Assembly: GCF_022701295.1 (NCBI RefSeq)
Contig: NZ_CP033204.1
Coordinates: 2,728,001 to 2,792,000, forward strand
Origin: Sphingopyxis sp. YF1
GTDB lineage: Bacteria > Pseudomonadota > Alphaproteobacteria > Sphingomonadales > Sphingomonadaceae
Direction of reading: 5' to 3'
DNA: 64,000 bases
A program made the translations under genes and the position numbers. The notes below the pieces were generated by a model. That model was not told the origin of the DNA and made no database searches. It was given only the letters and a program-made list of their open reading frames with translations. This document shows positions 365-34,739 of the stretch, piece after piece. Each line of letters starts with the position of its first letter. Position 1 is the stretch's first letter.

Positions 365-374
365 TATATGATTA
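365..374 (+). promoter_or_regulatory. TATATGATTA motif, copy 1 (exact)
   Basis: This exact 10-mer lies between the GntR gene end and the start of the E1 alpha gene. The same 10-mer occurs at four other promoters of the cluster. It is a candidate operator, inferred only from recurrence and position. Confidence 0.6.
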
Positions 375-408
375 CACTGCTTCTGTCGAGAGAATATGTC
401 GGTGAAAA

Positions 409-1203
409 TCAGTCGATCAGATCGACCACCGAATTGGGCCCGACCTGCGCCAGCCACACTTTGCCGGCGGCGATCATATGCGCCTTCCAGTGCCTCTCGG
501 CCCCCTCGGCGTCCTTGGCCTCGATCAGGTCGACCAGCTTCGAATGCGACTTCAGGCCGTAGCGCAGCTGGCGCATCGAGAATTCGGGATCGATATGCGA
601 ATTGCGGCGCTGGGCAAGATTGAGATGCTCGTCGGCCAGCCCGCGCAGCGCATTCGAAAACATGATCAGCGTCTTGTTGCCCGCCAGTTCGATCATCACC
701 TGGTGGAACTCGGCGATCTTCGCCGTCACCAGGAACCGGTCGCGGATGTTGGAAAGTTCCTCCTCGATCATCCGGCGCAGGATCGGCACCGCGACCTCGC
801 TGTTGCGCTGCGCCACGAGGCCCGCGGCGGGCGGCTCGATCAGCGTGCGCATCTCGTACAGGTCGCCGATGGTGACGCCCTTTGCCTGCAGCGTGATGCC
901 CGCCGCGCGCTCGATCATCTCGTAATTGGGCGAACTGACCCGTGCCCCACCGCGCGCGCCGCGCGCGACCGTCACCAGCCCTTCCGATTCGAGAATCCGC
1001 ACTGCTTCGCGGATCGTCGGGCGCGAGACCTCGAACTCGGCGATCAGGTGCGATTCGGCGGGCAGCGTGTCGCCATCGACCAGTTCGCCCCGGATGATGG
1101 CATTGCGGATCTGCTTCGCGACAAGTTCGGCCGTCTTGGGAACGCGCACGGCTTCAGCATTGCTGCGATTGCCGATGGGAATAGCGACAAAAGCGTTAGA
1201 CAA
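409..1203 (-). CDS. GntR family transcriptional regulator, FadR/FCD subfamily
   Basis: 264 residues. The N-terminal winged helix (about residues 25-95) shows the GntR pattern: AESHLIAEFEVSRPTIREAV, then LESEGLVTVARGARGG. The C-terminal part (about 105-250) is an all-helical FCD domain (MRTLIEPPAAGLVAQRN, then HSKLVDLIEAKDAEGAERHWKAH), which usually binds a small carboxylate and releases DNA. The start is a TTG, chosen because AAAAGGAATT sits 7 bases upstream and no ATG fits. It is transcribed away from the Rieske operon and is the best candidate for controlling it through the palindrome at 1354-1369 and possibly the TATATGATTA sites. The effector is unknown. Confidence 0.9.
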   Translation of the reverse strand: MSNAFVAIPIGNRSNAEAVRVPKTAELVAKQIRNAIIRGELVDGDTLPAESHLIAEFEVSRPTIREAVRILESEGLVTVARGARGGARVSSPNYEMIERAAGITLQAKGVTIGDLYEMRTLIEPPAAGLVAQRNSEVAVPILRRMIEEELSNIRDRFLVTAKIAEFHQVMIELAGNKTLIMFSNALRGLADEHLNLAQRRNSHIDPEFSMRQLRYGLKSHSKLVDLIEAKDAEGAERHWKAHMIAAGKVWLAQVGPNSVVDLID

Positions 1204-1302
1204 GTTTAATTCCTTTTTGGATTTTCGACCTTTTGCCTCGAAATCCGCGCGCGCGCAAGCAGGGTTGCCAACTCCCTCTTGCCAACAGTCATATTACCTA
1301 GT

Positions 1303-1312
1303 TAGATGATAA
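1303..1312 (+). promoter_or_regulatory. Degenerate copy of the cluster motif (TAGATGATAA)
   Basis: It has two mismatches to TATATGATTA and lies in the divergent region between the GntR gene and the Rieske operon. It is kept because it shares the TAxATGAT core seen at the other cluster promoters. Weak on its own. Confidence 0.35.
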
Positions 1313-1353
1313 AGACAGGCGCCCGGCAGTGGATGGCGTTGCGACGTCGGCCC

Positions 1354-1369
1354 ATTCAGTATACTGAAT
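1354..1369. promoter_or_regulatory. 16-bp perfect palindrome ATTCAGTATACTGAAT upstream of the Rieske operon
   Basis: The sequence equals its own reverse complement and ends 21 bases before the Rieske start codon, overlapping the expected promoter or leader. Its size and symmetry suit a dimeric GntR protein, and a GntR gene lies next door. The inner AGTATACT recurs at 34394-34401 before the phosphotransferase gene. That GntR binds it is inference. Confidence 0.6.
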
Positions 1370-1390
1370 TCCGACAAGGAGAGGAAATCG

Positions 1391-2734
1391 ATGAACGTTC
1401 AGACCAAGGACGGGCTCCAGCAGGATGGCGCGGGCTATGTCGTGGGGGCCGACCATTATATCTCGCCCGAATTCGCGAAGCTCGAAGCCGAAAATCTCTG
1501 GTATCGCGTCTGGCAGATGGCCTGCCGCGAGGAGGAAATCCCGAACGTCGGCGACTATTACACCTATGACATCGTCGACCAGTCGATCATCGTGATCCGC
1601 ATCGCAAAGGACGAGATCAAAGCCTATTACAACGTCTGCCCGCACCGCGGCAGGACGATCACCGAAGGTTGCGGCCACGCCGCGCGCCTGTTCTGCAAAT
1701 ATCACGGCTGGTCATGGAAACTCGACGGGACGATCGCCAAGGTCGTCGACCGTCACGAATGGCCCGCGGAATCGCTGACCGACGACGACCTCAACCTCGT
1801 CCCCGTCAAGGTCGGACGCTGGAGCGGCTGGGTCTATGTCAATCTCGACCCCGACAGCATCAGCCTCGAGGAGCATCTGGCGCCGGCCAAAGCCTATCTC
1901 GATCCCTATGACATCGGCGGGATGAGTTATCACTGGCGCAAGTCGACGGTCTTCGACTGCAACTGGAAGGTCGCACTCGAAGCATTCAACGAGGGTTATC
2001 ACGTCCAGACCACGCACAACCAGATGCTGCGTTACATGGACGACTGGACACAAAGCTATGCACGCGGGCGCCATTCGCACTTCGGTTACTGGGAATCGAT
2101 GCCCATGGGTTCGCGCTCGGCTCGACTGACCGACGGCAAGCCGACCGAAGACATCCGGCCCGGCATTCGCGACTATATGGAGGACATGGCGGCGACGCTG
2201 AACGCGGGTTCGTCGGTGCAGACCGTCTTTGCCGCGCGCCGCGTCGAGCAGGAGGTGCCACCGGGTACGCCGCCGATGGAGGTGCTCGCCAAGTTCGGCC
2301 AGTTCATTTATGAAAATGCCGTCTCGCAGGGTCTGCAATGGCCCAGCATCACCCCCGAACAAATGTATGCCGCGGGCGTCGACTGGCACCTGTTCCCCAA
2401 CCAGATCATGCTGATGGGGCCGACCGGCCTGCTCGGCTATCGCGCCCGCCCGTTCGGCACCAACCCCGACAAATGCATCTGGGATGTCTATTCGCTCCAG
2501 CGTTACGCCCCCGGGACCGCGCCGAAGGTCGAGCAGGAATGGAGTCAGGACCACGGCGACGTCGATTTCTGGGGGCTGATCCTGACCCAGGATTACCAGA
2601 ATATGGCCGAGGTCCAGAAGGGCATGAAATCGAAGGCGTTCAAGGGCGCCAAGCCCAATCCGCGGCAGGAGATCGCCGTGATCAATTTCCACCGCAGCCT
2701 CGATGACTTCATCGAAAATGGATATGGCGCATGA
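1391..2734 (+). CDS. Rieske non-heme iron oxygenase, large (alpha) subunit
   Basis: 447 residues. The Rieske [2Fe-2S] ligands are visible as C83-P-H85 and C102-K-Y-H105, followed by GW. The catalytic domain carries the mononuclear iron ligands H204 and H209 in NEGYHVQTTH. The residue that links the two metal sites, Asp in most ring-hydroxylating dioxygenases, is Glu201 here. The family inserts one or two oxygen atoms into aromatic or alicyclic substrates and needs electrons from a reductase with or without a ferredoxin; no such partner is encoded in the window. First gene of a four-gene operon, overlapping the next gene by 4 bases (ATGA). Substrate not predictable; the CKYH spacing argues against 3-ketosteroid 9-alpha-hydroxylase. 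Confidence 0.92.
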   Translation: MNVQTKDGLQQDGAGYVVGADHYISPEFAKLEAENLWYRVWQMACREEEIPNVGDYYTYDIVDQSIIVIRIAKDEIKAYYNVCPHRGRTITEGCGHAARLFCKYHGWSWKLDGTIAKVVDRHEWPAESLTDDDLNLVPVKVGRWSGWVYVNLDPDSISLEEHLAPAKAYLDPYDIGGMSYHWRKSTVFDCNWKVALEAFNEGYHVQTTHNQMLRYMDDWTQSYARGRHSHFGYWESMPMGSRSARLTDGKPTEDIRPGIRDYMEDMAATLNAGSSVQTVFAARRVEQEVPPGTPPMEVLAKFGQFIYENAVSQGLQWPSITPEQMYAAGVDWHLFPNQIMLMGPTGLLGYRARPFGTNPDKCIWDVYSLQRYAPGTAPKVEQEWSQDHGDVDFWGLILTQDYQNMAEVQKGMKSKAFKGAKPNPRQEIAVINFHRSLDDFIENGYGA

Positions 2735-4380
2735 GCGGCGGCTGGGACGAGAGCGCCGACTTCGTGATCGTCGGCAGCGGCGGCGGATCGATGCTCGCAG
2801 CAATCGAAGCCGTCGATGCGGGCAAGAAGCCGCTGATCCTCGAAAAGACCGATCGCGTCGGCGGCTCGACCGCGCTGTCGGGCGGGGTATTCTGGATTCC
2901 GAACCATCCGCTGCAGGCGCGCGAGGGCATCGAGGACAGCGACGAAAAGGCGCGCACCTATCTCGATGCGGCGGTGGGTGACGTCGGCCCGTCGACGTCG
3001 CGCGCGCGCAAGGACATGTTCCTTCGCATGGGGCCGCGGATGGTCCACTATCTCGAAGGCAAGGGTATGCCCTTCGTCCGCTACGGCGGCTGGTCGGACT
3101 ATCACGACGACCTGCCCGGCGGGCTCGGCGAAGGCCGGTCGCTCGGCGTCCAGATCTTCAACATCAAGTCGCTGGGCAAGGAATGGTATCCCAAGCTGCG
3201 CCGCGGCGAGTTCGGCGTCCCCGCCAAGCGTACGGAATCCAAGCATCTGACGCTGATGAAGGTCACCTGGGCGGGCAAGTTCGCAATGGTCAAGATCGGC
3301 CTCCGCATGATCCGCAACAAGCTTCTGGGCATCCACCAGGTCGGATCGGGCGCTGCGATCCAGGGCCGCATGCTCAAGATGGCGCTCGACCACCGTGTCG
3401 ACATTCGTACCGACATGGGCGTCACCGATCTGGTCGAGGAAGATGGCCGCATCACCGGTGTGGTCACCGAAAAGCATGGCAAGCCCTGGCGGATCGAGGC
3501 GCGCGACGGCGTGCTGATCAACGCCGGCGGCTTTGCGCGCAACGCCGAACTGCGGAAAAAATATGGCCCGCAGCCGTCATCGACCGAATGGACCAACGCC
3601 AACCCCGGCGACACGGGCGAGATGATCGAGATCGCCCGCGTGCACGGTGCCGCGCTCGACCTGACCGACCAGGCGGTGTGGATTCCAACCTCGGTCCCGC
3701 CCGACGGCCCGCCGCTGATGAACGTCCCCGACCTGCCCAAGCCGCACTGCATCCTCGTCGACAAGGCGGGCCGGCGCTTCGTCGACGAAGCGCAATCCTA
3801 TATGGCGAACGGTCAGGATTTCTACGCGCATGGCGCGGTGCCCGCGCACGCGATCATGGATGCCTCCTATTTCAAGAAATACAGCTGGGGTTTCCGTATG
3901 GGGGCGGTGCCGAAAATCTGGCACGAGAGCGGCTTCCTGAAGTCCGCATCGACGCTGCGCGAACTGGCGGAAAAGATCGGCGTCGACCCCGACGGGCTCG
4001 AGGCGACGGTCGCGCGCTTCAACGGCTTCGCCGCAGCAGGCAAGGATCTCGACTTCAGGCGCGGCGACAAGGCCTATGACCTCGTCTACGCCGACCGCAC
4101 GCACAAGCCGAGCCCCACGCTCGGCCCGATCGAGACCGCGCCCTATTATTCGATCGAGGTCTTTCCCGGCGACGTCGGCACCTTCGGCGGCATATTGACC
4201 GACGAATATGCCCGCGCGCTGCGCGAGGACGGATCGGTGATCCCCGGCCTCTATGCGACGGGCAATTCGACCGCGTCAGTGATGGGCAAGACCTATCCGG
4301 GCGCGGGGGCGAGCATCTCGCCCTCCTTCGTCTTCGGCTGGGTCGCGGCGCAGCACGCGCTGAACCGCATCCCCAACTGA
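2731..4380 (+). CDS. FAD-dependent oxidoreductase, 3-ketosteroid-delta1-dehydrogenase-like
   Basis: 549 residues. The N-terminal dinucleotide site is VIVGSGGGSM (residues 12-21), followed by EKTDRVGGSTALSGGVFWIP, a pattern typical of KstD and related flavoproteins of the fumarate reductase/succinate dehydrogenase group. The C-terminal FAD-binding stretch is GLYATGNSTASVMGKTYPG and GASISPSFVFGWVAA. Such enzymes introduce a double bond next to a ketone, or reduce one. It is translationally coupled to the Rieske gene, which suggests consecutive steps on a cyclic ketone. KstD activity on steroids is possible but unproven; the name marks a fold and motif match only. Confidence 0.85.
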   Translation: MSGGWDESADFVIVGSGGGSMLAAIEAVDAGKKPLILEKTDRVGGSTALSGGVFWIPNHPLQAREGIEDSDEKARTYLDAAVGDVGPSTSRARKDMFLRMGPRMVHYLEGKGMPFVRYGGWSDYHDDLPGGLGEGRSLGVQIFNIKSLGKEWYPKLRRGEFGVPAKRTESKHLTLMKVTWAGKFAMVKIGLRMIRNKLLGIHQVGSGAAIQGRMLKMALDHRVDIRTDMGVTDLVEEDGRITGVVTEKHGKPWRIEARDGVLINAGGFARNAELRKKYGPQPSSTEWTNANPGDTGEMIEIARVHGAALDLTDQAVWIPTSVPPDGPPLMNVPDLPKPHCILVDKAGRRFVDEAQSYMANGQDFYAHGAVPAHAIMDASYFKKYSWGFRMGAVPKIWHESGFLKSASTLRELAEKIGVDPDGLEATVARFNGFAAAGKDLDFRRGDKAYDLVYADRTHKPSPTLGPIETAPYYSIEVFPGDVGTFGGILTDEYARALREDGSVIPGLYATGNSTASVMGKTYPGAGASISPSFVFGWVAAQHALNRIPN

Positions 4381-4391
4381 CGGCGCGCGAG

Positions 4392-4964
4392 ATGGAACCC
4401 GCGCTGGAGGCCATGGTCCGCGAACTTTACGACAAGCAGAAGATCCGCGAGGTCGTCACCCGCTATTGCCGCGGGGTCGACCGGATGGACCGCGCGTTGT
4501 TCCTGTCAGCCTATCATCCCGACGCGATCGACGACCATGGTTTCGTCGTCGCGGGGCCGGAGGAATTCTGGACGTGGGTGAACCATTATCACACCACCGC
4601 CCAGTCGACCCACCAGCACATCGTCACCAACCACAGTTGCGAACTCGATGGTGACATCGCGCACGCCGAAACTTACTGGCTGTTTGCCGCACTCGACCCG
4701 AACGGGCAGAATCTGACCATCGGCGGCGGGCGCTATATCGACCGCATGGAAAAGCGCGGCGGCGAATGGCGGATCGCAGCGCGCAAATGCGTTCCCGACT
4801 GGGGCGGCCAGCCCGTGGCGACGCAGATCAGTCCCGAGGCACGCGCGATGCTTGCGCAAAGCGGCACGACCGCGCGCGACGCGACCGACTGCTCGTACGA
4901 ACGGCCGCTGACCATTCCCGCCGAACGGGTCGGCATCAACCTCGATATCCTCGCGGGCGCGTGA
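4392..4964 (+). CDS. NTF2-fold (SnoaL-like) protein, possible small subunit or isomerase
   Basis: 190 residues. The early stretch KIREVVTRYCRGVDRMDRAL and the later GGGRYIDRMEKRGGEWRIAARK are typical of SnoaL-like proteins. Members include steroid delta-isomerases, polyketide cyclases and, by fold and similar length, beta subunits of ring-hydroxylating dioxygenases. It follows the flavoprotein gene by 11 bases and precedes the MDR gene by 22, so it belongs to the Rieske operon. It could serve as the oxygenase beta subunit or act as a separate isomerase or dehydratase; sequence alone does not decide. Confidence 0.75.
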   Translation: MEPALEAMVRELYDKQKIREVVTRYCRGVDRMDRALFLSAYHPDAIDDHGFVVAGPEEFWTWVNHYHTTAQSTHQHIVTNHSCELDGDIAHAETYWLFAALDPNGQNLTIGGGRYIDRMEKRGGEWRIAARKCVPDWGGQPVATQISPEARAMLAQSGTTARDATDCSYERPLTIPAERVGINLDILAGA

Positions 4965-4986
4965 CACCGCGACGCGAGGCCGGCCG

Positions 4987-5994
4987 ATGAAGCTCTACCG
5001 CCTCCGCGATCACGGGTCGCTCGACAATCTGGCGGTCGAAGACGCGCCCGAACCCGCGGTCGCCCCCGATGAAGTGCTGGTCCGCATCCGCGCCGCTTCG
5101 CTCAATGCCCGCGATCTGATGATGGTCTTCGGTCCGTCGCCCTATGGCCCGAAACCGGGACTCGTGCCGCTGTCCGACGGCGCGGGCGAAGTTGTCGCGT
5201 GCGGATCGGCGGTGACCGACGTCGCGCCGGGTGCGCGCGTCGTCATTCCCTTCCGGCCGGGCTGGATCGACGGCCCGTTCGACCCCGCCGCGATCGCCAC
5301 CGATCTCGGCGGCGCGGTCGACGGGGTGCTCGCCGAGTATGTCGCGGTTCCCGCGCGCGCGGTGGTACCGATCCCCGACGCACTGTCGTTCGAACAGGCC
5401 GCGACGCTGCCCTGCGCCGGGGTGACCGCATGGGCGGCGCTCGACCGCGGCGCGCCGCTCCGCCCCGGGCACGGTGTGCTGATCATGGGCAGCGGCGGGG
5501 TTTCGCTGTTCGCCTTGCAAATCGCGCACACCTTGGGGTGCCGGGTGATCGCCACCACCTCGAGCGACGCCAAGGCCGACCGCCTGCGCGCGCTGGGGGC
5601 GAGCGACGTGATCAATTATCGCGAATATCCCGAATGGGACGCGCGCGTACGCGACCTGACCGGCGGGCGCGGGATCGAGCGCATCGTCGAAGTCGGCGGC
5701 GCGGGCACCCTGCCCCGTTCGATGGCGGCGCTGGCGCCCGAGGGCGAAATCGCGCTGGTTGGCCTGCTCGGCAATCCGACGCAGGCGATCAGCCCGCTCC
5801 CGCTGATGCGGACGACGGGCACGATCCGCGGCATTTCGGTCGGGTCGCGCGCCGACCTTGCTCGCCTCCTCGACCGCGCCGCGCACCATTTCGAGCCCGT
5901 GATCGACCGTGTTTTCGGCTTCGATGACGCGCGCGATGCCTTTGCCCACCTCGCCGCGCGGCGGCACTTCGGAAAAGTGGTGATCCGGGTCTGA
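4987..5994 (+). CDS. MDR superfamily NAD(P)-dependent oxidoreductase, zinc-free quinone-reductase-like
   Basis: 335 residues. N-terminal GroES-like domain, then a Rossmann domain with GVLIMGSGGVSLFALQIAHTLG (about residues 160-180) and YREYPEWDARVRDLTGGRGIE. The usual Cys/His catalytic and structural zinc ligands of alcohol dehydrogenases are not evident, so it fits the quinone oxidoreductase/enoyl reductase side of the family. Last gene of the Rieske operon; it ends 25 bases before the convergent SDR gene. It probably reduces an enone or quinone formed from the oxygenase product; this is inferred from context. Confidence 0.85.
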   Translation: MKLYRLRDHGSLDNLAVEDAPEPAVAPDEVLVRIRAASLNARDLMMVFGPSPYGPKPGLVPLSDGAGEVVACGSAVTDVAPGARVVIPFRPGWIDGPFDPAAIATDLGGAVDGVLAEYVAVPARAVVPIPDALSFEQAATLPCAGVTAWAALDRGAPLRPGHGVLIMGSGGVSLFALQIAHTLGCRVIATTSSDAKADRLRALGASDVINYREYPEWDARVRDLTGGRGIERIVEVGGAGTLPRSMAALAPEGEIALVGLLGNPTQAISPLPLMRTTGTIRGISVGSRADLARLLDRAAHHFEPVIDRVFGFDDARDAFAHLAARRHFGKVVIRV

Positions 5995-6942: not shown

Positions 6943-6996
6943 AGTCCGCTCCCACTTGTGCTTGCCGGCGATTCTCGCCTAATGGTATAAAAGGTT

Positions 6997-7006
6997 TATA
7001 TGATTA
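6997..7006 (+). promoter_or_regulatory. TATATGATTA motif, copy 2 (exact; extended form TATATGATTATA)
   Basis: It lies in the divergent promoter region between two SDR genes (starts at 6942 minus and 7136 plus). The extended 12-mer has TATA arms around a TGAT spacer, and flanking GG and CC extend the symmetry slightly. Candidate operator serving both directions. Confidence 0.6.
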
Positions 7007-7135: not shown

Positions 7136-7948
7136 ATGACCGACACCGGAAATTCCACCAACGCCGCGCTCGCGCCCTTCGCCCTGACCGGAAAGGTCGC
7201 GCTGATCACCGGCGGCGCCTCGGGGCTCGGCAAGGCGACCGCCGCGCTGTTCCTCGACGTCGGCGCAAAGGTGGTGATCGCCGACCTCGACGCCGAAGGA
7301 GCAAAGGTGGCGGCCGCCGAACTCGCCGGCAAGGGCGAAACCTTGGGCGTCGGCATGGACGTTTCCGACGAGACGGCGGTGCAGGCGGGATTCGCTGCCG
7401 CAGCCGCCGCCTTCGGCGGCGTCGACGTGCTGGTGAACAACGCCGCCTATCGCGGCAAGGCGAACACAATGGATATGTCGGTCGCCGAATGGGACATCAT
7501 GCACGCGGTCTGCGCGCGCGGCAGCTTCCTGTGCCTGCGCGAAGCGGTGAAACAGATGCGCGGGCGCGGCGGCGGGTCGATCGTCAACATCTCGTCGATG
7601 AGCGCGCAGCACCCGACGATCTTTCCCAACATGCATTATGATTCGGCGAAAGCCGGGGTCGATGCGATCACCCGGCTCGCCGCGGTCGAGTTCGCCAGCG
7701 ACGGGATCCGCGTCAATTCGGTGCTCCCCGGCGGCATGGCGACGCCCGGCCCCGACAAGATGCGCGCGGCGCAGGCGGCGGGGGGCGCGGTGATCGCCGG
7801 ACCCGCGACGATCCCCGGCCGCAACCCGATGGGCCGCGTCGCCGACCCGATCGAGATGGCGCGCGCCATCCTGTTCCTCGCCAGCGACGCGGCGAGCTAT
7901 ATCAACGGCGCCGAACTGCTCGTCGACGCCGGCTTCACCAAGGGCTGA
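7136..7948 (+). CDS. SDR family oxidoreductase
   Basis: 270 residues from the ATG at 7136, chosen because GAGGAAG lies just upstream and the protein then begins shortly before the Rossmann fold. Cofactor site ALITGGASGLGKATA, NNAAYRG in the NNAG position, and YDSAKAG as the Y-x3-K catalytic pair. The C-terminus INGAELLVDAGFTKG is standard for the family. First gene of an operon with ALDH (4-base gap), GMC oxidoreductase and a further SDR, consistent with oxidation of a hydroxyl group. Substrate unknown. Confidence 0.9.
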   Translation: MTDTGNSTNAALAPFALTGKVALITGGASGLGKATAALFLDVGAKVVIADLDAEGAKVAAAELAGKGETLGVGMDVSDETAVQAGFAAAAAAFGGVDVLVNNAAYRGKANTMDMSVAEWDIMHAVCARGSFLCLREAVKQMRGRGGGSIVNISSMSAQHPTIFPNMHYDSAKAGVDAITRLAAVEFASDGIRVNSVLPGGMATPGPDKMRAAQAAGGAVIAGPATIPGRNPMGRVADPIEMARAILFLASDAASYINGAELLVDAGFTKG

Positions 7949-7952
7949 GCCG

Positions 7953-9401
7953 ATGTCGGACCTGCTTTCGGACAGCCGCCCGCTGATCGGCGCCACGCGG
8001 CCCGCAATGACCGGCCCCGACACGCGCGATCATGTCAATCCGACGACGGGCCAGGTGCAGGCGTCGGTGATGATCGGCGGCGCGGCCGAAATCGACGCCG
8101 CTGCCCGCACCGCGGTGGCGGGCCAGAACGCGTGGCAGGCGCTCGGCCCCGAGCGGCGCCGCGACTGCCTGCTCCGCCTCGCCGATCTGGTCGAGGCCGA
8201 CACGCCGCGCCTGCTCCAGATCGCCGCGCGCGAATGCGGCACGCCCGTCTCGAGCAATTCGAGCGGGCTCGCGCTGTCGTGGATCCGCTATTATGCCGGC
8301 TGGGCCGACAAGATCGAGGGCACGTACAGCGAGCCCTTCGGCATCACCGGCCTCGCATACGCCCGCCACGAACCGATCGGCGTGATCGGCGTCATCATCC
8401 CGTGGAATTCGCCGCTGGTCGCGATATCGATGACCGCGATCCTCGCGATGGCGGCGGGCAATGCGGTCGTCCTCAAGCCGCCGACGCAAACGCCCTTTGT
8501 CGCGCTGCGCTTCGGCGAACTGGCGCTCGAGGCGGGCATCCCGCCCGGCGTACTCAACATCGTCCCCGGCGATGCCGAAGCCGGCGAAGCGCTGATCGCG
8601 CATCCCGCGGTCGGCAAGGTCAGCTTCACCGGCGGCGACATCGTCGCCAAGGCGGTGATGCGCACCGCCGCCGAGCATCTGAAGCCCGTCGCGCTCGAAC
8701 TCGGCGGCAAATCGGCGAACCTGATCTTCGCCGACGCCGACCTCGACGTCGCGGCGACGATGGCCGCGACGTGCAGCCTCGTCCCGCTTGCGGGGCAAGG
8801 CTGCGTGCTGCCGACGCGCGTCTATGCGCAGGCGGCGATCTTCGACGAATTCGTCGATCGCGTGCGCGCGCAGGCCCAGGCGTTCACGCTCGGCGACCCG
8901 CTCGATCCCGCGACGGTGGTCGGGCCCGTGATCAACGAGGCCTCGGCACAACGGATCATCGGAGTGATCGAGCGCGCGAAAACCGAAAGCGGCGGATCGC
9001 TCGTCGCCGGCGGTCGGCGCGGTCAGGGCGCGCTCGCGGCGGGCAGCTTCGTCGAGCCCACCGTCTTCGCGGGCGTCGCGCACGACAGCCATCTCGCGCG
9101 CGAGGAAGTGTTCGGGCCGGTGCTGTCGATCGTCCAGTTCGACAATGAAGCCGATGCGGTCGCGATGGCCAATGACTCGCGCTTCGGCCTCGGCGCCTAT
9201 GTCCACACCCGCGACCTGTCGCGCGCGCACAGGGTCGCGGCCGAACTTGAGGCCGGATGCGTCGCGGTCAACGGCATGCTGCCGATGGCCGCCAACCAGC
9301 CCTTCGGCGGCGTCAAGCAGAGCGGCTTCGGGCGCGAGGGCGGCCGTCCCGGGCTCGAGGAATTCATGCAGATCAAACAGGTGCTGCTGCACCTGCGCTG
9401 A
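7953..9401 (+). CDS. NAD(P)-dependent aldehyde dehydrogenase
   Basis: 482 residues, normal family length. The cofactor region contains IGVIGVIIPWNSPLV and the strand SFTGGDIVAKAV. The catalytic glutamate lies in VALELGGKSANLIF and the nucleophilic cysteine in PLAGQGCVLPTR. C-terminal NQPFGGVKQSGFGREGG matches the oligomerisation and active-site segment. It oxidises an aldehyde to the acid. It sits between an SDR and a GMC oxidoreductase, which fits alcohol to aldehyde to acid oxidation, with CoA ligases downstream to activate the product. Confidence 0.93.
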   Translation: MSDLLSDSRPLIGATRPAMTGPDTRDHVNPTTGQVQASVMIGGAAEIDAAARTAVAGQNAWQALGPERRRDCLLRLADLVEADTPRLLQIAARECGTPVSSNSSGLALSWIRYYAGWADKIEGTYSEPFGITGLAYARHEPIGVIGVIIPWNSPLVAISMTAILAMAAGNAVVLKPPTQTPFVALRFGELALEAGIPPGVLNIVPGDAEAGEALIAHPAVGKVSFTGGDIVAKAVMRTAAEHLKPVALELGGKSANLIFADADLDVAATMAATCSLVPLAGQGCVLPTRVYAQAAIFDEFVDRVRAQAQAFTLGDPLDPATVVGPVINEASAQRIIGVIERAKTESGGSLVAGGRRGQGALAAGSFVEPTVFAGVAHDSHLAREEVFGPVLSIVQFDNEADAVAMANDSRFGLGAYVHTRDLSRAHRVAAELEAGCVAVNGMLPMAANQPFGGVKQSGFGREGGRPGLEEFMQIKQVLLHLR

Positions 9402-9412
9402 AGGAGCGCCGC

Positions 9413-11017
9413 ATGGAGGAAGAAACCGACTTCGTCATCATCGGCGGCGGCAGCGCGGGCTGTGTGCTCGCCGCGCGGCTGAGCGAGAACCCCGCACATC
9501 GCGTCATCCTGCTCGAAGCCGGGGGCGAGGGGCGCGATTTCCTGATCAACATGCCTGCGGGTACCGCGAAGCTGATGGGGCACCGGGATTTCGACTGGTG
9601 CCTGCCGACCGAGCCCGATCCCTCGATCAATGACCGCACGATGCAGTGGGCCGCGGGCAAGGCGCTCGGCGGCAGTTCGGCGATCAACGGTCAGGTCTAT
9701 ATGCGCGGCGAGCGCTCGGATTACGACCGCTGGGCGGCGATGGGCTGCGCCGGCTGGGACTATGACGCGGTCTTTCCCTATTTCCTGAAAGCCGAATGTT
9801 TCCATGGCGCTCCAACGCAGTCGCACGGACGCCACGGCCCGCTGAGCGTCTCGCCGATCCGCGATCCGCAGCCGATCGGCCAATATGTCATCGACGCCTT
9901 CGTCGCGGCCGGAATCCCGCTCAACGCCGACTATTGCAACGGCAGCCAGAGCGGCGTGTACCGGATCTTCGCGACGCAAAAGGACGGACAGCGCTGTTCG
10001 GTGGCGCGCGCCTATCTCGAACCCGTCCGCGACCGCCCGAACCTGACGGTGATCACAGGGGCCCATGTCGACCGGATCCGGGTCGAGAACGGCCGCGCGA
10101 CCGGCGTCGAGATGCGGGTGGACGGGGGTCCGCGGATCATCCGGGCGCGGCGCGAGGTGCTTCTGTGCGCGGGTACGATGGTATCGCCGGCCATTTTGAT
10201 GCGGTCGGGGATCGGTCCCGGCGCGCATCTCGCCGATCACGGCATCGCGGTGCACGCCGACCTGCCCGGTGTCGGACAGAATCTGCGCGAGCATAACAGC
10301 GTGTCGCTCGCCAAACTGGTCAGCGTCCCGACGATGAGCGCCGAACTCGGGCCGGTGAAGCTCGTGCGGCACATGCTGAACTATCTGCTGTTCCGCCGCG
10401 GACTGCTAACGACGCCGGCGGTGCAGGTAATGGCGGCGTTCCGGACCGATCCCGCGCTCGCCGATCCCGATATCATTCTGTCGATGCTGCCCGTCGCGGT
10501 GACCTTCAACGACAGGGGCGACGCGGTGGTCGAAAAACGCCCCTCCTTTTCCTTCGGCTTCCACGTCGCGCGCCCCGCCAGCCGAGGCGAGATTCGACTG
10601 CGCAGCGCCGATCCCGACACCAAGCCGGTGATCGATCACCGGCTACAGGGCGCACAGGAGGATGTCGACAAGCTGGTCAGGGCGCTCAGGATCGTCGAGG
10701 GCATCTGCCGCACCCGGCCGCTCGCCGACATCGTCACCGGCACGCTGCGCCCCGATCCGATGCCCGACGACGACGCCGGCTGGGAAGCCTATGTACGCCA
10801 ATGGGGCGGCATCGGCTACCATGCCGTCGGCACCTGCCGCATGGGGCCGGATGGCGACCCGATGGCCGTACTCGACCCGCAGCTTCGGGTCCGCGGCATT
10901 GCCGGGCTGCGCGTCGTCGATGCGTCGGTGATGCCCGAACCCGTGTCCGCCAACACCAACGCGCCGACGATCATGATCGCCGAGCGCGCCGCCGAATGGA
11001 TAGGAGCAAGCCAATGA
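9413..11017 (+). CDS. GMC family FAD-dependent alcohol oxidoreductase
   Basis: 534 residues. Start ATG at 9413, with AAGGAGCG upstream. The FAD-binding motif is DFVIIGGGSAGCVLAARLSE, followed by the second GMC signature around GKALGGSSAINGQVYMRG. The C-terminal catalytic region shows YHAVGTCRMGP (catalytic His) and VSANTNAPTIM (Asn as the second residue). The family includes choline dehydrogenase, polyethylene glycol dehydrogenase and related primary-alcohol dehydrogenases. The ALDH/GMC/ligase order recalls polyethylene glycol operons of Sphingopyxis, but the rest of the cluster does not. Overlaps the next gene by 4 bases. Confidence 0.92.
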   Translation: MEEETDFVIIGGGSAGCVLAARLSENPAHRVILLEAGGEGRDFLINMPAGTAKLMGHRDFDWCLPTEPDPSINDRTMQWAAGKALGGSSAINGQVYMRGERSDYDRWAAMGCAGWDYDAVFPYFLKAECFHGAPTQSHGRHGPLSVSPIRDPQPIGQYVIDAFVAAGIPLNADYCNGSQSGVYRIFATQKDGQRCSVARAYLEPVRDRPNLTVITGAHVDRIRVENGRATGVEMRVDGGPRIIRARREVLLCAGTMVSPAILMRSGIGPGAHLADHGIAVHADLPGVGQNLREHNSVSLAKLVSVPTMSAELGPVKLVRHMLNYLLFRRGLLTTPAVQVMAAFRTDPALADPDIILSMLPVAVTFNDRGDAVVEKRPSFSFGFHVARPASRGEIRLRSADPDTKPVIDHRLQGAQEDVDKLVRALRIVEGICRTRPLADIVTGTLRPDPMPDDDAGWEAYVRQWGGIGYHAVGTCRMGPDGDPMAVLDPQLRVRGIAGLRVVDASVMPEPVSANTNAPTIMIAERAAEWIGASQ

Positions 11018-11716: not shown

Positions 11717-11752
11717 AACGTCTAAATGATTCGTCTAAATCAGATAGACGTT
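11717..11752. promoter_or_regulatory. Repeat-rich operator candidate before the acyl-CoA ligase gene
   Basis: AACGTCTA at 11717-11724 pairs perfectly with TAGACGTT at 11745-11752, and CGTCTAAAT is repeated directly at 11719-11727 and 11732-11740 (period 13). Within it, TAAATGATTC (11723-11732) matches the TATATGATTA cluster motif with two mismatches. The block lies in the only sizeable gap of the operon (80 bases), so it may be an internal, separately controlled promoter. Confidence 0.45.
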
Positions 11753-11783
11753 AATATTGCAGACAGGTGAGGATTCCGGCTTC

Positions 11784-13280: not shown

Positions 13281-13305
13281 TCGGGAGCGACGGGCATCGC
13301 ATCGG

Positions 13306-15138: not shown

Positions 15139-15141
15139 CGG

Positions 15142-16350: not shown

Positions 16351-16378
16351 TTCCTGCTCCGATTGCATTTTGTTGTAT

Positions 16379-16388: not shown

Positions 16389-16444
16389 TCTGTTTATAGC
16401 GAAAAGCAAGCACCCTGCGCAGACGGGGCAAGAATGGGAAGAAG

Positions 16445-18969: not shown

Positions 18970-18979
18970 TAATCATATA
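18970..18979 (-). promoter_or_regulatory. TATATGATTA motif, copy 3 (exact, minus strand)
   Basis: It lies directly after the ligase stop codon and 77 bases before the hot-dog hydratase start. Its presence inside an apparently continuous operon suggests the hydratase and enoyl-CoA hydratase genes have their own regulated promoter. Confidence 0.55.
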
Positions 18980-19055
18980 ACGAATTTACTTGATTCAACC
19001 TCCCGGCGCCTGCATGGATTCGGAAACCAGAGGCAGAGGAAGCGAGAAGAGAGAG

Positions 19056-20309: not shown

Positions 20310-20363
20310 TCCCGGCCTTTGACCGCGGCGCCGCGCGCGCCGCGGTCCAGACATGGACCGAGC

Positions 20364-26167: not shown

Positions 26168-26212
26168 AGCGTAACGGCGAGCAAGCCTCTGTCAATATCG
26201 TATATATTATTC
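26168..26212 (-). promoter_or_regulatory. Promoter of the TonB receptor gene with adjacent degenerate cluster motif
   Basis: On the minus strand TTGACA (26195-26190) and TACGCT (26173-26168) are 16 bases apart, a good housekeeping-type promoter 71 bases from the start codon. Just upstream of the -35 box, TATATTATTC (26203-26212 on the plus strand) matches TATATGATTA with two mismatches, where an activator or repressor could act. Confidence 0.55.
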
Positions 26213-26248
26213 GGTAAATTGATATGAAAAATTCGACAGATCGACGGT

Positions 26249-31040: not shown

Positions 31041-31059
31041 ATCCGGCTTGCAACCGGAT
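31041..31059. promoter_or_regulatory. Inverted repeat ATCCGG-N7-CCGGAT next to operator copy 4
   Basis: Perfect 6-bp arms around CTTGCAA, itself nearly self-complementary. It lies 9 bases from the TATATGATTA copy at 31068-31077, within the leader or promoter of the TonB receptor gene. It could be a second protein-binding site or a leader hairpin. Confidence 0.4.
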
Positions 31060-31067
31060 TTGTTATA

Positions 31068-31077
31068 TATATGATTA
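31068..31077 (+). promoter_or_regulatory. TATATGATTA motif, copy 4 (exact; extended TATATGATTATA)
   Basis: It lies in the 351-base gene-free region 30889-31239 between the second TonB receptor gene and the CMD gene, embedded in a longer AT-rich run. The 12-mer is identical to the one at 6997-7008. The rest of the gap shows nothing else I recognise apart from copy 5 and the neighbouring inverted repeat. Confidence 0.6.
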
Positions 31078-31162: not shown

Positions 31163-31172
31163 TAATCATATA
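31163..31172 (-). promoter_or_regulatory. TATATGATTA motif, copy 5 (exact, minus strand)
   Basis: It lies 68 bases before the CMD gene start and faces the opposite way to copy 4, 95 bases away. Two copies in one divergent region could allow cooperative binding or looping. Confidence 0.6.
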
Positions 31173-31239
31173 TCTACGTTATTGGATACTTGCGTCGAGC
31201 GCGGTTCAGCGCCACGTTTTCGGGCAAAGGAGAGGATTG

Positions 31240-31812
31240 ATGAATCGCATTCCCCTGGTCGCGGTCGAGGACCTCACGCCGCAGCAGCGCGACGCCTATG
31301 ACAACAAGCCCGGCGGCAAGCTCAACCTTTCGCGCCTGCTCGCGCATGCGGTGACGATGCAGCCGGGCATCGGCCTCGCGGTGCAGGGCATGATGACGGG
31401 GATCGAGGTCCCGCCGCTCGAGCGCCAGATCTGCGTCCTCGCGGTGCTCCACCTCGACCGCGGCGCCTATGAATGGGCGCAGCATATCGAGGTGTCGAAG
31501 GCGATGGGGATCGCCGACGCCAAGGTCGCGGCGATCGCCGACGACCGCTTCGGCGACCCCGTCTTCGACGCGCGCGAACGCGCGCTGCTCGCCTTCACCC
31601 GCCAGGTCGTCAAGACCGTGCGCGTCGATGATTTCGTCTTCGCCGCGGTCGCCGCCTTCTATTCGCCGCGCCAGATCGTCGAACTGATCCACGTCATCGG
31701 CATCTACATGCTGTTCGCACGCGTGTCCGAGGTTGCCGAGCTCGAGATCGACGCCGTCGCCGGCGGCGATTTCTGGAAACAGGCCAACCAGCAGGCGGGG
31801 CTGGTCGAATGA
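31240..31812 (+). CDS. Carboxymuconolactone decarboxylase (AhpD-like) family protein without the redox cysteine pair
   Basis: 190 residues; ATG 31240 follows a strong AAAGGAGAGG site. The helical CMD core is visible in ICVLAVLHLDRGAYEWAQHI and REREALLAF-like ERALLAFTRQVVKTV, with the conserved E-W-A-x-H. The AhpD Cys-x-x-Cys is missing, so a peroxidase role is unlikely; decarboxylase, lactone-related or unknown roles remain. First gene of an operon, overlapping the enoyl-CoA hydratase gene by 4 bases. Such Cys-less CMD proteins are common in catabolic clusters, with unclear function. Confidence 0.82.
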   Translation: MNRIPLVAVEDLTPQQRDAYDNKPGGKLNLSRLLAHAVTMQPGIGLAVQGMMTGIEVPPLERQICVLAVLHLDRGAYEWAQHIEVSKAMGIADAKVAAIADDRFGDPVFDARERALLAFTRQVVKTVRVDDFVFAAVAAFYSPRQIVELIHVIGIYMLFARVSEVAELEIDAVAGGDFWKQANQQAGLVE

Positions 31813-32633
31813 CCGGGCCGGGCATCGAAACGATCGACTATGCCTTCGTGCGGCTGGCATTCGACGGCGCGCTGGCGGTCGTCACGCTCAACGACCCCGA
31901 CCGGCTCAACGCGATGGGCGACGAAATGGCCGAATCGCTCGCCGCGGCGCTGGCCGAGATCGTCAAGCCGCGGCGGCGCTGCCGCGCGGTGCTGCTCACC
32001 GGCGAAGGCCGCGCCTTTTGCGCCGGCTATAATCTGATGGTGAGCCGCAAGGCCCTCGCCGCGGGCCAGTCGACGATCCGCCCGCTCGGCGGCGCCGAGA
32101 CGCTCTATCACCCGATGCTCCGCCGCCTGCACGCGCTCCCCATCCCGCTGATCGCCGGGGTCAACGGCCTCGCGATCGGCATCGGGCTCGGGCTCGTCAT
32201 GGCCGCCGACCATGTCGTGATGGCCGACGAGGCGTGGATGCAGACGCCCTTCGCCAGGCTCGCCTCGGCGCCCGACTCGGGCCTGTCGTGGCTGCTCCCG
32301 CGTGCGATCGGGGTGCCGCGCGCCAAGCGCATGCTGATGCGCGCCGAACGGATCGATGCGGCGACCGCACTCGCGTGGGGGCTGGCGGCGGAGAGCGTGC
32401 CGGCCGCCGCCCTCCCCGATCGCGCCCGCACGGTGGCGCGCGAGTTCGCGGATGGCGCGACCCTCGCGCTCGGCGAGATCAAGGCGCTGGTCGCCGACGG
32501 CCTGCGGCAGGACCTGCACAGCAGCTTCGAAGCCGAGGCGCGCGCGGTCGCGCGAACCGCGCGAACCAAGGACAATCTCGCCGCGGTGCGCGTCTTCGCC
32601 TCGAAGGAGCAGCCCGTCTTCACCGGCGAATAG
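31809..32633 (+). CDS. Enoyl-CoA hydratase/isomerase family protein
   Basis: 274 residues. Crotonase motifs LLTGEGRAFCAGYNLMVSRK and LIAGVNGLAIGIGLGLVMAA form the two oxyanion-hole strands. The loop ASAPDSGLSWLLPRAIG has Asp where hydratases often carry Glu, as in several isomerases and aldolase-type members. Second gene of the operon (ATGA with the CMD gene), followed by a TetR regulator. It differs clearly from the hydratase at 20364-21134, so the two probably act on different intermediates. Confidence 0.9.
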   Translation: MTGPGIETIDYAFVRLAFDGALAVVTLNDPDRLNAMGDEMAESLAAALAEIVKPRRRCRAVLLTGEGRAFCAGYNLMVSRKALAAGQSTIRPLGGAETLYHPMLRRLHALPIPLIAGVNGLAIGIGLGLVMAADHVVMADEAWMQTPFARLASAPDSGLSWLLPRAIGVPRAKRMLMRAERIDAATALAWGLAAESVPAAALPDRARTVAREFADGATLALGEIKALVADGLRQDLHSSFEAEARAVARTARTKDNLAAVRVFASKEQPVFTGE

Positions 32634-32643
32634 GTGCACCGAT

Positions 32644-32678
32644 TTGACATTGTGACAAAAAACGTCATTGCGTTAATA
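32644..32678 (+). promoter_or_regulatory. Candidate promoter of the TetR gene
   Basis: TTGTGA (32650-32655) and TTAATA (32673-32678) are 17 bases apart; an overlapping TTGACA starts at 32644. TGAC-N7-GTCA inside the spacer is a short inverted repeat that could be the repressor's own site. Prediction from sequence only. Confidence 0.4.
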
Positions 32679-32719
32679 CCTGCGCCGCCCCAGCCCGGAC
32701 GGCGGACATCGGGGGCAGC

Positions 32720-33274
32720 ATGGCGTCGGAAACCAAGATCGATCGCGCGGTGGCGGCGGCGGCCGACCAGTTCATCCGCTACGGCTTCGCGCGCACGACG
32801 ATGGGCGACATCGCGCGCGCGGCAGAGATGTCGCGCCCCGCACTCTACCTGCTTTTCGCCGGAAAGGAAGAAGCGTTCGAGGCGGCGGTCGAGCATCTGA
32901 ACCGCATCCGCATGGCCGAAATCCGCGGCGCACTGGCCCCCGCGGCCGGGCTTGCCGACCGGCTGTCGATCGCCTGCGACCTGTGGCTGGTGCAGGTCTT
33001 CGACCTCCAGCAACGCACCCCCGACGCGCGCGACATGGACGATCTGTCGATCCCGGTGGTGCGCCGCGTCTATGCCGAACTCGAAGCGCTGATCGCCGAG
33101 CTGATCGCGGCCGGCGCGACCGGGCCGCTTCCCGCCGCCGCGACGGACCTCGCGCGCGGGCTCGTCTTTGCGGTGCGCGGACTGGGCGCCGCGACCGACG
33201 ATGTCTCGACCTTCCGTTCGATGATGCACCTGCAGGTCGACCTGCTCTGCCGCGCGGTCGCGCCGCGCGGCTGA
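32720..33274 (+). CDS. TetR family transcriptional regulator
   Basis: 184 residues. The N-terminal helix-turn-helix is standard: AAADQFIRYGFARTTMGDIA, then RAAEMSRPALYLLFAGKEEAF. The C-terminal ligand domain (about 60-184) is divergent, as usual. It follows the CMD/ECH pair by 86 bases and has its own likely promoter. It is the second regulator of the cluster and probably responds to a cluster metabolite, perhaps an acyl-CoA; ligand and targets unknown. Confidence 0.9.
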   Translation: MASETKIDRAVAAAADQFIRYGFARTTMGDIARAAEMSRPALYLLFAGKEEAFEAAVEHLNRIRMAEIRGALAPAAGLADRLSIACDLWLVQVFDLQQRTPDARDMDDLSIPVVRRVYAELEALIAELIAAGATGPLPAAATDLARGLVFAVRGLGAATDDVSTFRSMMHLQVDLLCRAVAPRG

Positions 33275-33281
33275 CGCGGCG

Positions 33282-34352
33282 TCAGACGCCCAGTGCGCCG
33301 AAGGTATCGAGGTCCGACACCGCGGCGCCGAAGCAGTCGCCCTCGGCGGTGACGATCTCGATCGGCTGCATCTCGAGCGGAGTGAAGGGCCACATGAACC
33401 CGTGCATCGCATGGCGCCGATACGCCTCCCACGCCTCTTCGCGGCTCGGCGGACGCGCGACGCCATGGGTGTTCAGCGCCGCCAGATAGCCCGCGAGCAG
33501 GTCTTTTTCGGCCGCGCGCCGGTCCTCGACCCGCAGGTTGCCGATAATCGAATAGGCGACGTCGTGCATATACGGCCCCTCCTGCCACGCCTGCCAGTCG
33601 AGGAAGCCCGGGCGCCCGTCGGTTTCGAAGAACATGTTCCCGAGATGCGCGTCGCCGTGCGAGAAGCATTGCGGGATTTCGGGCGAGCGCCTCCACTGCG
33701 CGCGCAGCCCCGCCATGATCCGCTCGCGGTCGCGATAGGGGCCGACATAGGCGGCGCAGCGGCGATGGTTGATGCAGGCTTCGAAATAGGCGGGTTCGAG
33801 CATCATCATCACGACGCGGTCGGCCGCCTGCCAGACGGTCGAGAAATTGCGCAGCGTCTTGAGTTCGGGCGACTGCCACCAGCGCGCGTGCATCCGCGCG
33901 AGCAGGTCGAGCGTCTGCGCCTGCTGGTCGAGGCTGATCGGCCGCGTGGCGTTGCCGAAGGCGATGTTGCGCGCGGCCAGATCCTCCATCAGCACCAGCC
34001 CCTGCACACCCTCGTGCCAGCCCGACCAATAGGCGCGCGGGATATGGATGGTCATTTCCGGCGCCCAGGCGGCGAAGAATTTGGCCTCGTTCACGAAGGA
34101 TTCGTCGAAGGTATAGGCGTGGCGGATAAAGCCGCCCTTGAGCCACATCGTCGGCGGCAGCCGGTGCGCATGCCCCGCGTCATTATAGGCAAGCAGCAGC
34201 CGCACCTTGGTCGCGGTGCCCGCGATGACGGTCCCGATATGCAGCTCGGTGACGACCGTGCCGGGAAAATTTTCGGCGAGGACCGACGTCAGCCAGTCGG
34301 CGGTGATCTCCTCGATGCGCAGCGGCAGGTGGCTCCGGGGTGCGTCGGCCAT
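33282..34352 (-). CDS. APH-like phosphotransferase family protein
   Basis: 356 residues. The kinase-like catalytic loop is FSHGDAHLGNMFF (H-G-D-x-H-x-x-N), followed by the metal-binding FLDWQ. The N-terminal lobe includes LRIEEITADWLTSVLAENFP and the nucleotide-site strand around GTATKVRLLLAYND. The family spans aminoglycoside, choline and homoserine kinases and hydroxyl-group kinases linked to lipid or hydroxyacyl metabolism. At the edge of a catabolic cluster, phosphorylation of a hydroxylated intermediate is more likely than antibiotic resistance, but this is inference. AGTATACT lies upstream at 34394-34401. Confidence 0.85.
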   Translation of the reverse strand: MADAPRSHLPLRIEEITADWLTSVLAENFPGTVVTELHIGTVIAGTATKVRLLLAYNDAGHAHRLPPTMWLKGGFIRHAYTFDESFVNEAKFFAAWAPEMTIHIPRAYWSGWHEGVQGLVLMEDLAARNIAFGNATRPISLDQQAQTLDLLARMHARWWQSPELKTLRNFSTVWQAADRVVMMMLEPAYFEACINHRRCAAYVGPYRDRERIMAGLRAQWRRSPEIPQCFSHGDAHLGNMFFETDGRPGFLDWQAWQEGPYMHDVAYSIIGNLRVEDRRAAEKDLLAGYLAALNTHGVARPPSREEAWEAYRRHAMHGFMWPFTPLEMQPIEIVTAEGDCFGAAVSDLDTFGALGV

Positions 34353-34393
34353 TGGCGGCTCCTCTCTCGTTCGATTCCTTGTATCGCTTATTT

Positions 34394-34401
34394 AGTATAC
34401 T
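34394..34401. promoter_or_regulatory. AGTATACT half of a GntR-like palindrome
   Basis: It is identical to the centre of the perfect palindrome before the Rieske operon, and it lies 42 bases upstream of the phosphotransferase start on the minus strand. Flanks (TT and CT) are only partly symmetric, so it would be a weaker site. Confidence 0.4.
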
Positions 34402-34729
34402 CTTTCAAGATTTGGCAAGCCGCCAAATGGAGCGTGCGATCGGCATGGGGCCGGCAGCGCGGAAGGTGGCTTTGGGGTGGGAAGCGGACGTTCGCTCAAT
34501 CTCTTTCGTCATCACGGACTTCGTGGGGACATCTAATGTTATAGAGAGTTGGAAGTCGCTATTTGAACCGCACTGCCCCCCATGCCGTTTCGTGGAAGCC
34601 TCAGACTACCGAGCACAAACCGGCAGTAGGACACGTCCCTTCGCACCTTATGTTTAAACACACCAGTCAGGACTACGTTTTTCCTTGCGCTAGCTGCGTC
34701 GGCCGGCCAGAATAATCCTCCTAATAGGT

Positions 34730-34739
34730 TATATAATTA
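34730..34739 (+). promoter_or_regulatory. Cluster motif with one mismatch (TATATAATTA) before the Gfo/Idh/MocA gene
   Basis: It ends 17 bases before the start codon, overlapping the likely promoter. If functional, it would tie this gene to the catabolic regulon even though its composition differs. Confidence 0.4.

What the first reader, a model, noticed from the sequence alone, without database searches (positions are those of the whole stretch)
365..34739. One AT-rich motif (TATATGATTA) recurs at nearly every promoter of the catabolic cluster
Exact copies lie at 365-374, 6997-7006, 18970-18979 (minus), 31068-31077 and 31163-31172 (minus). Related sites sharing a TAxATxAT or TAxATGAT core lie at 1303-1312, 11723-11732, 16379-16388 (minus), 26203-26212 and 34730-34739. 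In about 65% GC DNA a given 10-mer with nine A/T is expected far less than once in 64 kb on both strands, and all copies fall in intergenic control regions. This suggests a single regulon of 25-odd genes under one protein, most simply the FCD GntR at 409-1203 or the TetR at 32720-33274. The extended form TATA-TGAT-TATA has short symmetric arms.
Basis: partly seen in the sequence, partly recalled or inferred. Interest (0 to 1): 0.8.

Follow-up and report, generated by a model that had tools for sequence, protein, structure and literature searches.

The report
Operator of one catabolic-cluster GntR regulator
A short AT-rich DNA word repeated in front of the genes of a bacterial degradation cluster is half of a 27-base palindrome that is most probably the switch site of the cluster's own GntR-type repressor, and it also marks pieces of the cluster that lie elsewhere in the chromosome.

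Summary
TATATGATTA occurs 6 times in the 4.37-Mb Sphingopyxis genome. Five copies are the ones listed; the sixth precedes an E2 gene in a displaced piece of the same cluster. The word read backwards occurs 0 times. It is the stronger half of an imperfect 27-bp palindrome (consensus TAATCATATAACTAATTTANATGATTA), not the TATA-TGAT-TATA element proposed. A matrix trained on relatives' sites, without window sequence, recovers all ten reader sites.

Best reading: operator of the FCD-GntR at 409-1203, an autoregulated repressor. The dyad is in the gntR promoter, or just upstream of SDR1-gntR, in 13 of 13 cluster-bearing assemblies held. It also stands at two promoters around a 54% GntR in another genus with different neighbouring genes and no full-length TetR relative. 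Among 80 genus genomes the profile hits the seven with a GntR ortholog, plus one single hit. The TetR at 32720 has its own, different palindrome. The cluster, one stretch in two relatives, lies in three chromosomal blocks here, each with operators.

Atypical: no canonical FadR-subfamily TKGT-N3-ACMA core. Binding, sign of control, effector and substrate are inferred.

The parts
348..374 (-). operator in front of the E1 dehydrogenase gene (start 320, minus); contains exact copy 365-374
   Evidence: score 27.8; same place in relatives; 27 nt from start codon
409..1203 (-). FCD-domain GntR regulator, proposed binder and autorepressor
   Evidence: Pfam GntR and FCD; 11 named orthologous loci
1286..1312 (.). 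operator between divergent gntR and Rieske oxygenase genes (proposed autoregulatory site)
   Evidence: score 29.7; footprint conserved in 10 of 12 aligned upstream regions
1391..5994 (+). Rieske oxygenase, KstD-like flavoprotein, SnoaL-like, Zn-ADH: probable operon
6980..7006 (.). operator between divergent SDR genes; contains exact copy 6997-7006; 10 of 13 pairs symmetric
   Evidence: score 37.7; pairs
7136..11703 (+). SDR, ALDH, GMC oxidoreductase, SDR: probable operon
11728..11754 (.). operator-like site before acyl-CoA ligase 11784; also terminator-like hairpin
   Evidence: score 23.5; counterpart sites in G215, G223, G259, G269, G275
11784..15138 (+). two AMP-binding (acyl-CoA ligase-like) genes
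16370..16396 (.). operator between divergent P450 and alpha/beta-hydrolase genes
   Evidence: score 28.0; 19 nt from the P450 start codon
15142..16350 (-). cytochrome P450, CYP101 (camphor 5-monooxygenase) type
   Evidence: nearest solved structures
16445..18969 (+). alpha/beta-hydrolase and AMP-binding (ligase-like) genes
18970..18996 (-). operator before the FAS1-type dehydratase and ECH genes; contains exact copy 18970-18979
   Evidence: score 33.3
19056..21134 (+). dehydratase-like and enoyl-CoA hydratase-like genes
26195..26221 (.). weaker operator upstream of TonB-dependent receptor 23524-26097 (minus)
   Evidence: score 18.7; counterpart sites in G215, G259, G269
31051..31077 (+). operator at the TonB-receptor side of the divergent promoter; contains exact copy 31068-31077
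   Evidence: score 26.7
31163..31189 (-). operator 50 nt before CMD-like gene 31240; contains exact copy 31163-31172
   Evidence: score 29.2
31240..32633 (+). CMD-like (below cut-off) and enoyl-CoA hydratase-like genes
32653..32667 (.). separate palindrome TGACAAAAAACGTCA in the TetR promoter, proposed TetR autoregulatory site
32720..33274 (+). TetR regulator, not the proposed binder of the AT dyad
34713..34739 (.). operator 17 nt before the GFO/IDH/MocA gene (start 34757)
   Evidence: score 30.2

Best explanation
The recurring word is one half of a 27-bp imperfect palindromic operator (half-site TAATCATATA, 7-nt gap, opposed half-site) bound by a dimer of the FCD-GntR protein encoded at 409-1203. 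Without its effector, probably an acidic or CoA-linked intermediate of the pathway held in the FCD pocket, GntR represses its own gene and the promoters of the catabolic cluster (oxygenase, P450, dehydrogenases, acyl-CoA ligases, TonB receptors, and the E1 and E2 genes of an oxo-acid dehydrogenase). The effector releases it. Because the control is in trans, pieces of the cluster that lie at 634-660 kb and 2.86-2.88 Mb also carry the operator. Shown by sequence: the operator, its distribution, its symmetry and its linkage to gntR. Inferred: binding, repression, effector.
For: Six genomic copies, all in the cluster or its displaced block. Dyad at gap 7: mean 4.58 of 10 matches in 38 non-redundant sites (from 73), against a shuffled best-gap value of 3.02 +- 0.11, largest 3.55. 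Operator in the gntR promoter in 11 of 13 cluster-bearing assemblies held, and about 25 nt upstream of SDR1-gntR in the other 2. All 13 distinct gntR genes (18 loci) whose DNA-binding domain is at least 86% identical have a dyad within 1.5 kb; 1 of 32 loci with a domain at most 72% identical does. G056, a 26-kb contig of another genus with a 54% GntR and different neighbours, has two dyads at promoters on either side of gntR; it has no word within one mismatch, so it gave no training site, and 0 of 100 local shuffles reach two. Profile R1 over 80 genus genomes: matches at E<=1 in the 7 genomes with a GntR ortholog of 63% or more (6-8 each), one in one other, none in 72; in the window's genome 7 of 7 lie in the three cluster blocks. 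Operators lie 17-37 nt from the start codon at five genes, which fits repression.
Against: None of 10 window operators has the FadR-subfamily core GT-N2-4-AC, and 0 of 40 aligned sites has TKGT-N2-4-ACMA, though 5 of 40 have a bare GT-N2-4-AC (consensus from PMC4494728, passages). The second half-site is poor in several sites (6 of 13 pairs at four sites; 4 of 13 at 26195). G031, with a GntR of 52-53%, has 0 sites in 40 kb. In G056 no site lies within 1.5 kb of gntR. L077, a distant GntR (39%), has two dyad-like sites nearby. Two profile matches in relatives (G215:C30, G223 at 1.82 Mb) lie in stretches without cluster genes, and so does one score-23.4 site of the window's genome (2334449). GntR, TetR and the cluster co-occur in the genus, so co-occurrence there does not separate them. 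The matrix and R1 were built from the same assemblies, including some gntR-promoter sites. No binding or expression data.
Confidence: 0.82

Rival explanations
1. The dyad is bound by the TetR at 32720-33274, which controls the cluster.
For: TetR lies in the cluster and its orthologs are in the same 7 genus genomes as GntR, and as long matches of 42% or more in 7 of 10 genomes tested by handle, two of which are G238 and G242 again. Long palindromes suit TetR proteins (recalled).
Against: TetR has its own palindrome beside 8 of 12 orthologs, one exact copy in this genome. No TetR relative passed E<=1e-5 in G282, whose gntR promoter has an exact half-site, but G282 is a 2.3-Mb metagenome assembly and may be incomplete; in G056 only a 62-residue partial hit. 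In the window the TetR promoter itself scores no more than 8.1.
Confidence: 0.06
2. Another regulator (the tandem-HTH GntR at 650 kb, the LuxR-like protein at 2.87 Mb, or an unlinked protein) binds the dyad, and gntR is only one of its targets.
For: Both lie in displaced blocks of the cluster. The operator is non-canonical for an FCD-GntR. A different GTATAC palindrome, TTCAGTATACTGAA, lies between gntR and the Rieske gene.
Against: In the stretches held, the tandem-HTH GntR has full-length relatives in 4 other assemblies (G223, G275, G277, G279) and the LuxR-like protein above 40% in 3 (G215, G259, G269), while GntR is in all 13; but the stretches were chosen around gntR, so this is partly by construction, and whole genomes were not searched for these two. 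TTCAGTATACTGAA is not found within 3 mismatches at that place in G259 or G269. G056 ties the dyad to GntR outside this cluster.
Confidence: 0.09
3. The words are merely AT-rich core promoter (-10) sequences of a GC-rich genome.
For: They lie just upstream of genes and resemble TATAAT; one overlaps a sigma-70-like hit (31048-31075).
Against: Six copies in the genome, all in the cluster blocks, and 0 of the reversed word; 27-bp dyad; 0 sites at score 20 in 63.5 kb of neighbouring DNA with its own promoters; shuffled intergenic DNA rarely gives them.
Confidence: 0.03

Closest known systems
FadR/FCD subfamily of GntR repressors (PdhR, LldR, GlcC, ExuR type)
   Same: GntR wHTH plus FCD domain; AT-rich palindromic operators at catabolic genes (PMC4494728, passages).
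   Different: Operator is 27 bp with outer arms TAATCA..TGATTA and, in 12 of 40 aligned sites, an AC-N3-GT centre; no TKGT-N3-ACMA core.
NanR of E. coli
   Same: Best solved-structure relative by sequence (6on4, E 3.1e-16); some residues before the HTH; non-canonical operator.
   Different: NanR binds (GGTATA)3 direct repeats (PMC8012715, abstract and passages); here an inverted repeat. NCBIfam NanR model 108 bits against a cut-off of 260.
BioR (FadR subfamily, TTATMKATAA; PMC4494728, passages)
   Same: AT-rich palindrome without the GT/AC core.
   Different: 10-bp site; no homology test made here.
Regulons reconstructed by comparative genomics (PMC4494728, passages; RegPrecise papers, listing only)
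   Same: Same kind of inference from orthologous promoters.
   Different: No paper in the library holds GntR, FCD and Sphingopyxis together; the half-site words gave only unrelated titles among the 20 of 53 papers listed.

Membership tests
FCD (FadR-subfamily) GntR regulator, for the protein 409-1203 | N-terminal GntR wHTH | tested here: met
   PF00392 E 2.1e-18, above cut-off
FCD (FadR-subfamily) GntR regulator, for the protein 409-1203 | C-terminal FCD domain | tested here: met
   PF07729 E 1.6e-15, above cut-off
FCD (FadR-subfamily) GntR regulator, for the protein 409-1203 | metal-binding histidines of the FCD pocket (recalled) | tested here: inconclusive
   H167, H220, H242 invariant in the 11 aligned sequences; structure job did not finish (last asked)
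Canonical FadR-subfamily operator | TKGT-N3-ACMA palindrome | tested here: not met
   0 of 10 window sites, 0 of 40 aligned sites
NanR | GGTATA direct repeats and NanR model score | tested here: not met
   inverted repeat; 108 of 260 bits
Single autoregulated regulon | same operator at regulator and target promoters, rare elsewhere | tested here: met
   few unexplained copies elsewhere
Single autoregulated regulon | direct binding and expression change in a mutant | not testable with these tools
   needs EMSA, DAP-seq or RNA-seq
TetR-controlled regulon (TetR 32720) | regulator's own promoter carries the motif | tested here: not met
   a different palindrome there; best dyad score in that promoter 8.1

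The most novel reading that the evidence does not exclude
An FCD-GntR lineage of sphingomonads reads a new operator class (27 bp, TAATCAnnTA-AC-N3-GT-TAnnTGATTA geometry, without the GT-N-AC core of its subfamily) and holds a dispersed regulon together: in the window's genome the cluster lies in three chromosomal blocks, and each block, including the 140-kb-separated E1 and E2 genes of one presumed dehydrogenase, keeps its operators.
Probability: 0.6. Interest if true: 0.55.

Novelty: new member of a known kind. Interest (0 to 1): 0.45.

Why it matters
It gives a testable operator, a regulator and a gene list for a catabolic regulon, for which I found no description, in Sphingopyxis, Novosphingobium and Sphingorhabdus records. 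Operator presence can be used to pull in displaced pathway genes, as it did here for an E2 acyltransferase and an acyl-CoA dehydrogenase. If binding is confirmed, it adds a non-canonical operator to the FadR-subfamily specificity code, and it is a clear natural case of a dispersed cluster with its regulon kept.

Tried and rejected
TetR as binder: rejected because of its private palindrome. Simple AT-rich promoter: rejected by the reversed control, shuffles and dyad. TATA-TGAT-TATA symmetry: not the dyad found. TTCAGTATACTGAA (1355-1368) as the real GntR site: one copy near gntR, not found at that place in G259 or G269. Core AACYNRGTT in the promoters of GntR homologs: a strict pattern gave no hit in any locus scanned, true orthologs included, so it was too strict to inform. 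First matrix drifted towards AT-richness because gene calling failed in lower-GC relatives; replaced by one trained without the window and without iteration. Mann-Whitney used a hand-copied list lacking one zero (74 of 75 genomes); not relied on. Sigma-70 scan: 2 found against 2.2 expected, and 6 against 2.6; uninformative. Site 37135-37161: scores 22.3 but is a separate palindrome at an ArsR-like gene. Site at 2334449 (23.4): no cluster genes near it; left unexplained. In the count of one-mismatch sites inside intergenic DNA I used nine Sphingopyxis stretches; of the eight others, L032 had 2 of 2, five had failed or doubtful gene calls, and L043 and L044 had no site; L033 had one reversed-word hit. 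Structure prediction never finished, so no fold search was run. Paper searches for a known regulator of this cluster gave none.
Full report
OBSERVATION. In the whole 4,367,405-bp contig the word occurs six times, five in this stretch, and the word read backwards not at all. For a given copy, the chance that at least four of the other five fall within 30.8 kb of it is about 2e-7, not corrected for which copy is taken. With up to one mismatch there are 42 sites against 11 for the reversed word. Of the 36 one-mismatch sites, 23 distal ones were read as loci; four of these, at three promoters, reach score 20 with the 27-bp matrix: 640 kb (two sites), 659 kb and 2.33 Mb, and only the last is outside a cluster block. 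In nine cluster-bearing Sphingopyxis stretches (seven genomes) 43 of 45 sites with up to one mismatch are intergenic, although intergenic DNA is about 6-24% of them; the reversed word has 1.

WHAT THE MOTIF IS. 73 sites from the window and relatives were oriented on TAATCATATA and reduced to 38 non-redundant ones. The opposed half-site appears at a gap of 7 nt: mean 4.58 of 10 matches, against 3.02 +- 0.11 for the best gap in 500 shuffles, largest 3.55. Peaks at negative gaps in that table overlap the word itself; no other gap of 0 or more exceeds 3.55. The operator is therefore about 27 bp. Alignment of 40 sites, picked by hand from the 125 listed, gives TAATCATATAACTAATTTANATGATTA. The ten window sites average 6.8 of 13 symmetric pairs, against 3.5 for 4439 other intergenic 27-mers; they were found with a symmetric matrix, so this is descriptive. 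A matrix from 43 relatives' sites, window excluded, finds all ten reader sites (18.7-37.7) and an eleventh at 37135-37161, which I read as an ArsR-type palindrome. The 11728 site overlaps a terminator-like hairpin and the 26195 site is weak, so these two are less certain.

WHOSE SITE. (a) Aligning gntR upstream regions of 12 orthologs shows a footprint, TTATCATCTAACTAGGTAATATGAC, in 10. The other two (G277, G279) have a dyad about 25 nt before SDR1, which precedes gntR on the same strand. With G223 this makes 13 of 13 cluster-bearing assemblies held. (b) All 13 distinct gntR genes with a DNA-binding domain at least 86% identical have a dyad within 1.5 kb; 1 of 32 more distant loci does (L077), which I cannot explain. 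Many of the close sites were in the training set. (c) An independent case is G056, another genus, GntR 54% identical. Its neighbours are a thiolase, short-chain dehydrogenases, a FadB-like fusion and a ligase; window proteins match this contig at only 29-35% apart from the GntR, and its TetR match is a 62-residue partial hit. It has two dyads at score 20 or more. One is in the divergent promoter of the thiolase, whose same-strand gene run ends with gntR. The other is upstream of the FadB-like gene on the other side of gntR. 0 of 100 local shuffles reach two, and it gave no training site. Against this, G031 (52-53%) has none in 40 kb. (d) The TetR promoter has another palindrome, beside 8 of 12 orthologs and not seen at the other four (G238, G242, G277, G279) with the patterns used; one exact copy in this genome. 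(e) Two other regulators in the displaced blocks are found in fewer of the held stretches, but those were chosen around gntR.

GENOME-WIDE DISTRIBUTION. Over 80 genomes of the genus, a profile of 40 sites matches at E<=1 in the seven genomes that carry a GntR of 63% or more (6-8 each, 47 in all, three places being counted on both strands) and once in G211; the other 72 have none. This search used stricter filters that lose weak matches. Positives are partly circular because their sites built the profile; the silence of the 72 is the informative part, though they also lack GntR orthologs. Two matches, G215:C30 and G223 at 1.82 Mb, lie in stretches where no cluster gene was recognised. Exact words: 6, 5, 5, 6 and 4 in the five genomes with the closest GntR, 42 in all in the other 75 (at most 4, in G246, counted by hand).

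A DISPERSED CLUSTER, A KEPT REGULON. In G223 and G215 the genes form one stretch, about 80 kb and at least 65 kb. In the window's genome they lie in three blocks: 634-660 kb, the window block, and 2.86-2.88 Mb. The profile's seven matches in this genome all lie in these blocks. I read this as a cluster that was split; no tree was made to fix the direction. The sixth exact word lies 93 nt before a catalytic-domain-only E2 acyltransferase gene, while the window block has the E1 gene behind another operator; as a full dyad the E2 site is weak (16.2).

MECHANISM. Operators end 17, 19, 27, 29 and 37 nt from the start codons of the GFO, P450, E1, ACS1 and SDR1 genes; at seven other genes the distance is 48-129 nt. 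Close sites suit blocking RNA polymerase; hence a repressor, by inference. [quoted passage not shown] three histidines that may hold a metal are invariant. The cluster contains a CYP101-type P450, a KstD-like flavoprotein (best model just under its cut-off), a Rieske oxygenase and acyl-CoA ligase-like genes, so an alicyclic terpenoid or steroid-like substrate is likely; this is not shown.

COMPARISON. The protein meets the two domain criteria of the FCD-GntR family. Its presumed operator does not meet the canonical core of that subfamily; PMC4494728 lists NanR and BioR among exceptions (passages). Papers were seen as search listings (one search was empty) and as passages for PMC4494728 and PMC8012715; none was read whole.

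VERDICT. The kind is familiar; the operator form and the regulon kept across a dispersed cluster are the interesting parts.

Noticed in passing
L168:166-1341 (genome 650166-651341): A 391-aa GntR with two GntR HTH stretches and one FCD domain in a single chain, like a fused pseudo-dimer; relatives in G223, G275, G277, G279.
   Followed up: partly
window 32653-32667: Private palindrome of the TetR promoter; a second copy stands near the P450 module operator in G223 and G259.
   Followed up: partly
window 1355-1368: Perfect palindrome TTCAGTATACTGAA between gntR and the Rieske gene, weakly conserved.
   Followed up: partly
window 37135-37161: AT-rich palindrome ending at the start (about 37155) of an ArsR-like gene; probably that regulator's own site.
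   Followed up: partly
window 1-320 and L126:9807-10520: E1 and detached E2 subunit genes of a presumed oxo-acid dehydrogenase lie about 140 kb apart, both with the motif in front.
   Followed up: partly
L077: A 39%-identical GntR in another Sphingopyxis genome has two dyad-like sites nearby despite a different DNA-binding domain.
   Followed up: no
L126:11761-12852: 363-aa protein without Pfam match, conserved in three relatives, ending in what looks like a LuxR-type HTH, in the displaced block.
   Followed up: no
G215:C30:3768 (L172) and G223:C1:1820834 (L173): Profile matches in relatives with no recognised cluster gene nearby: further regulon members or chance.
   Followed up: no
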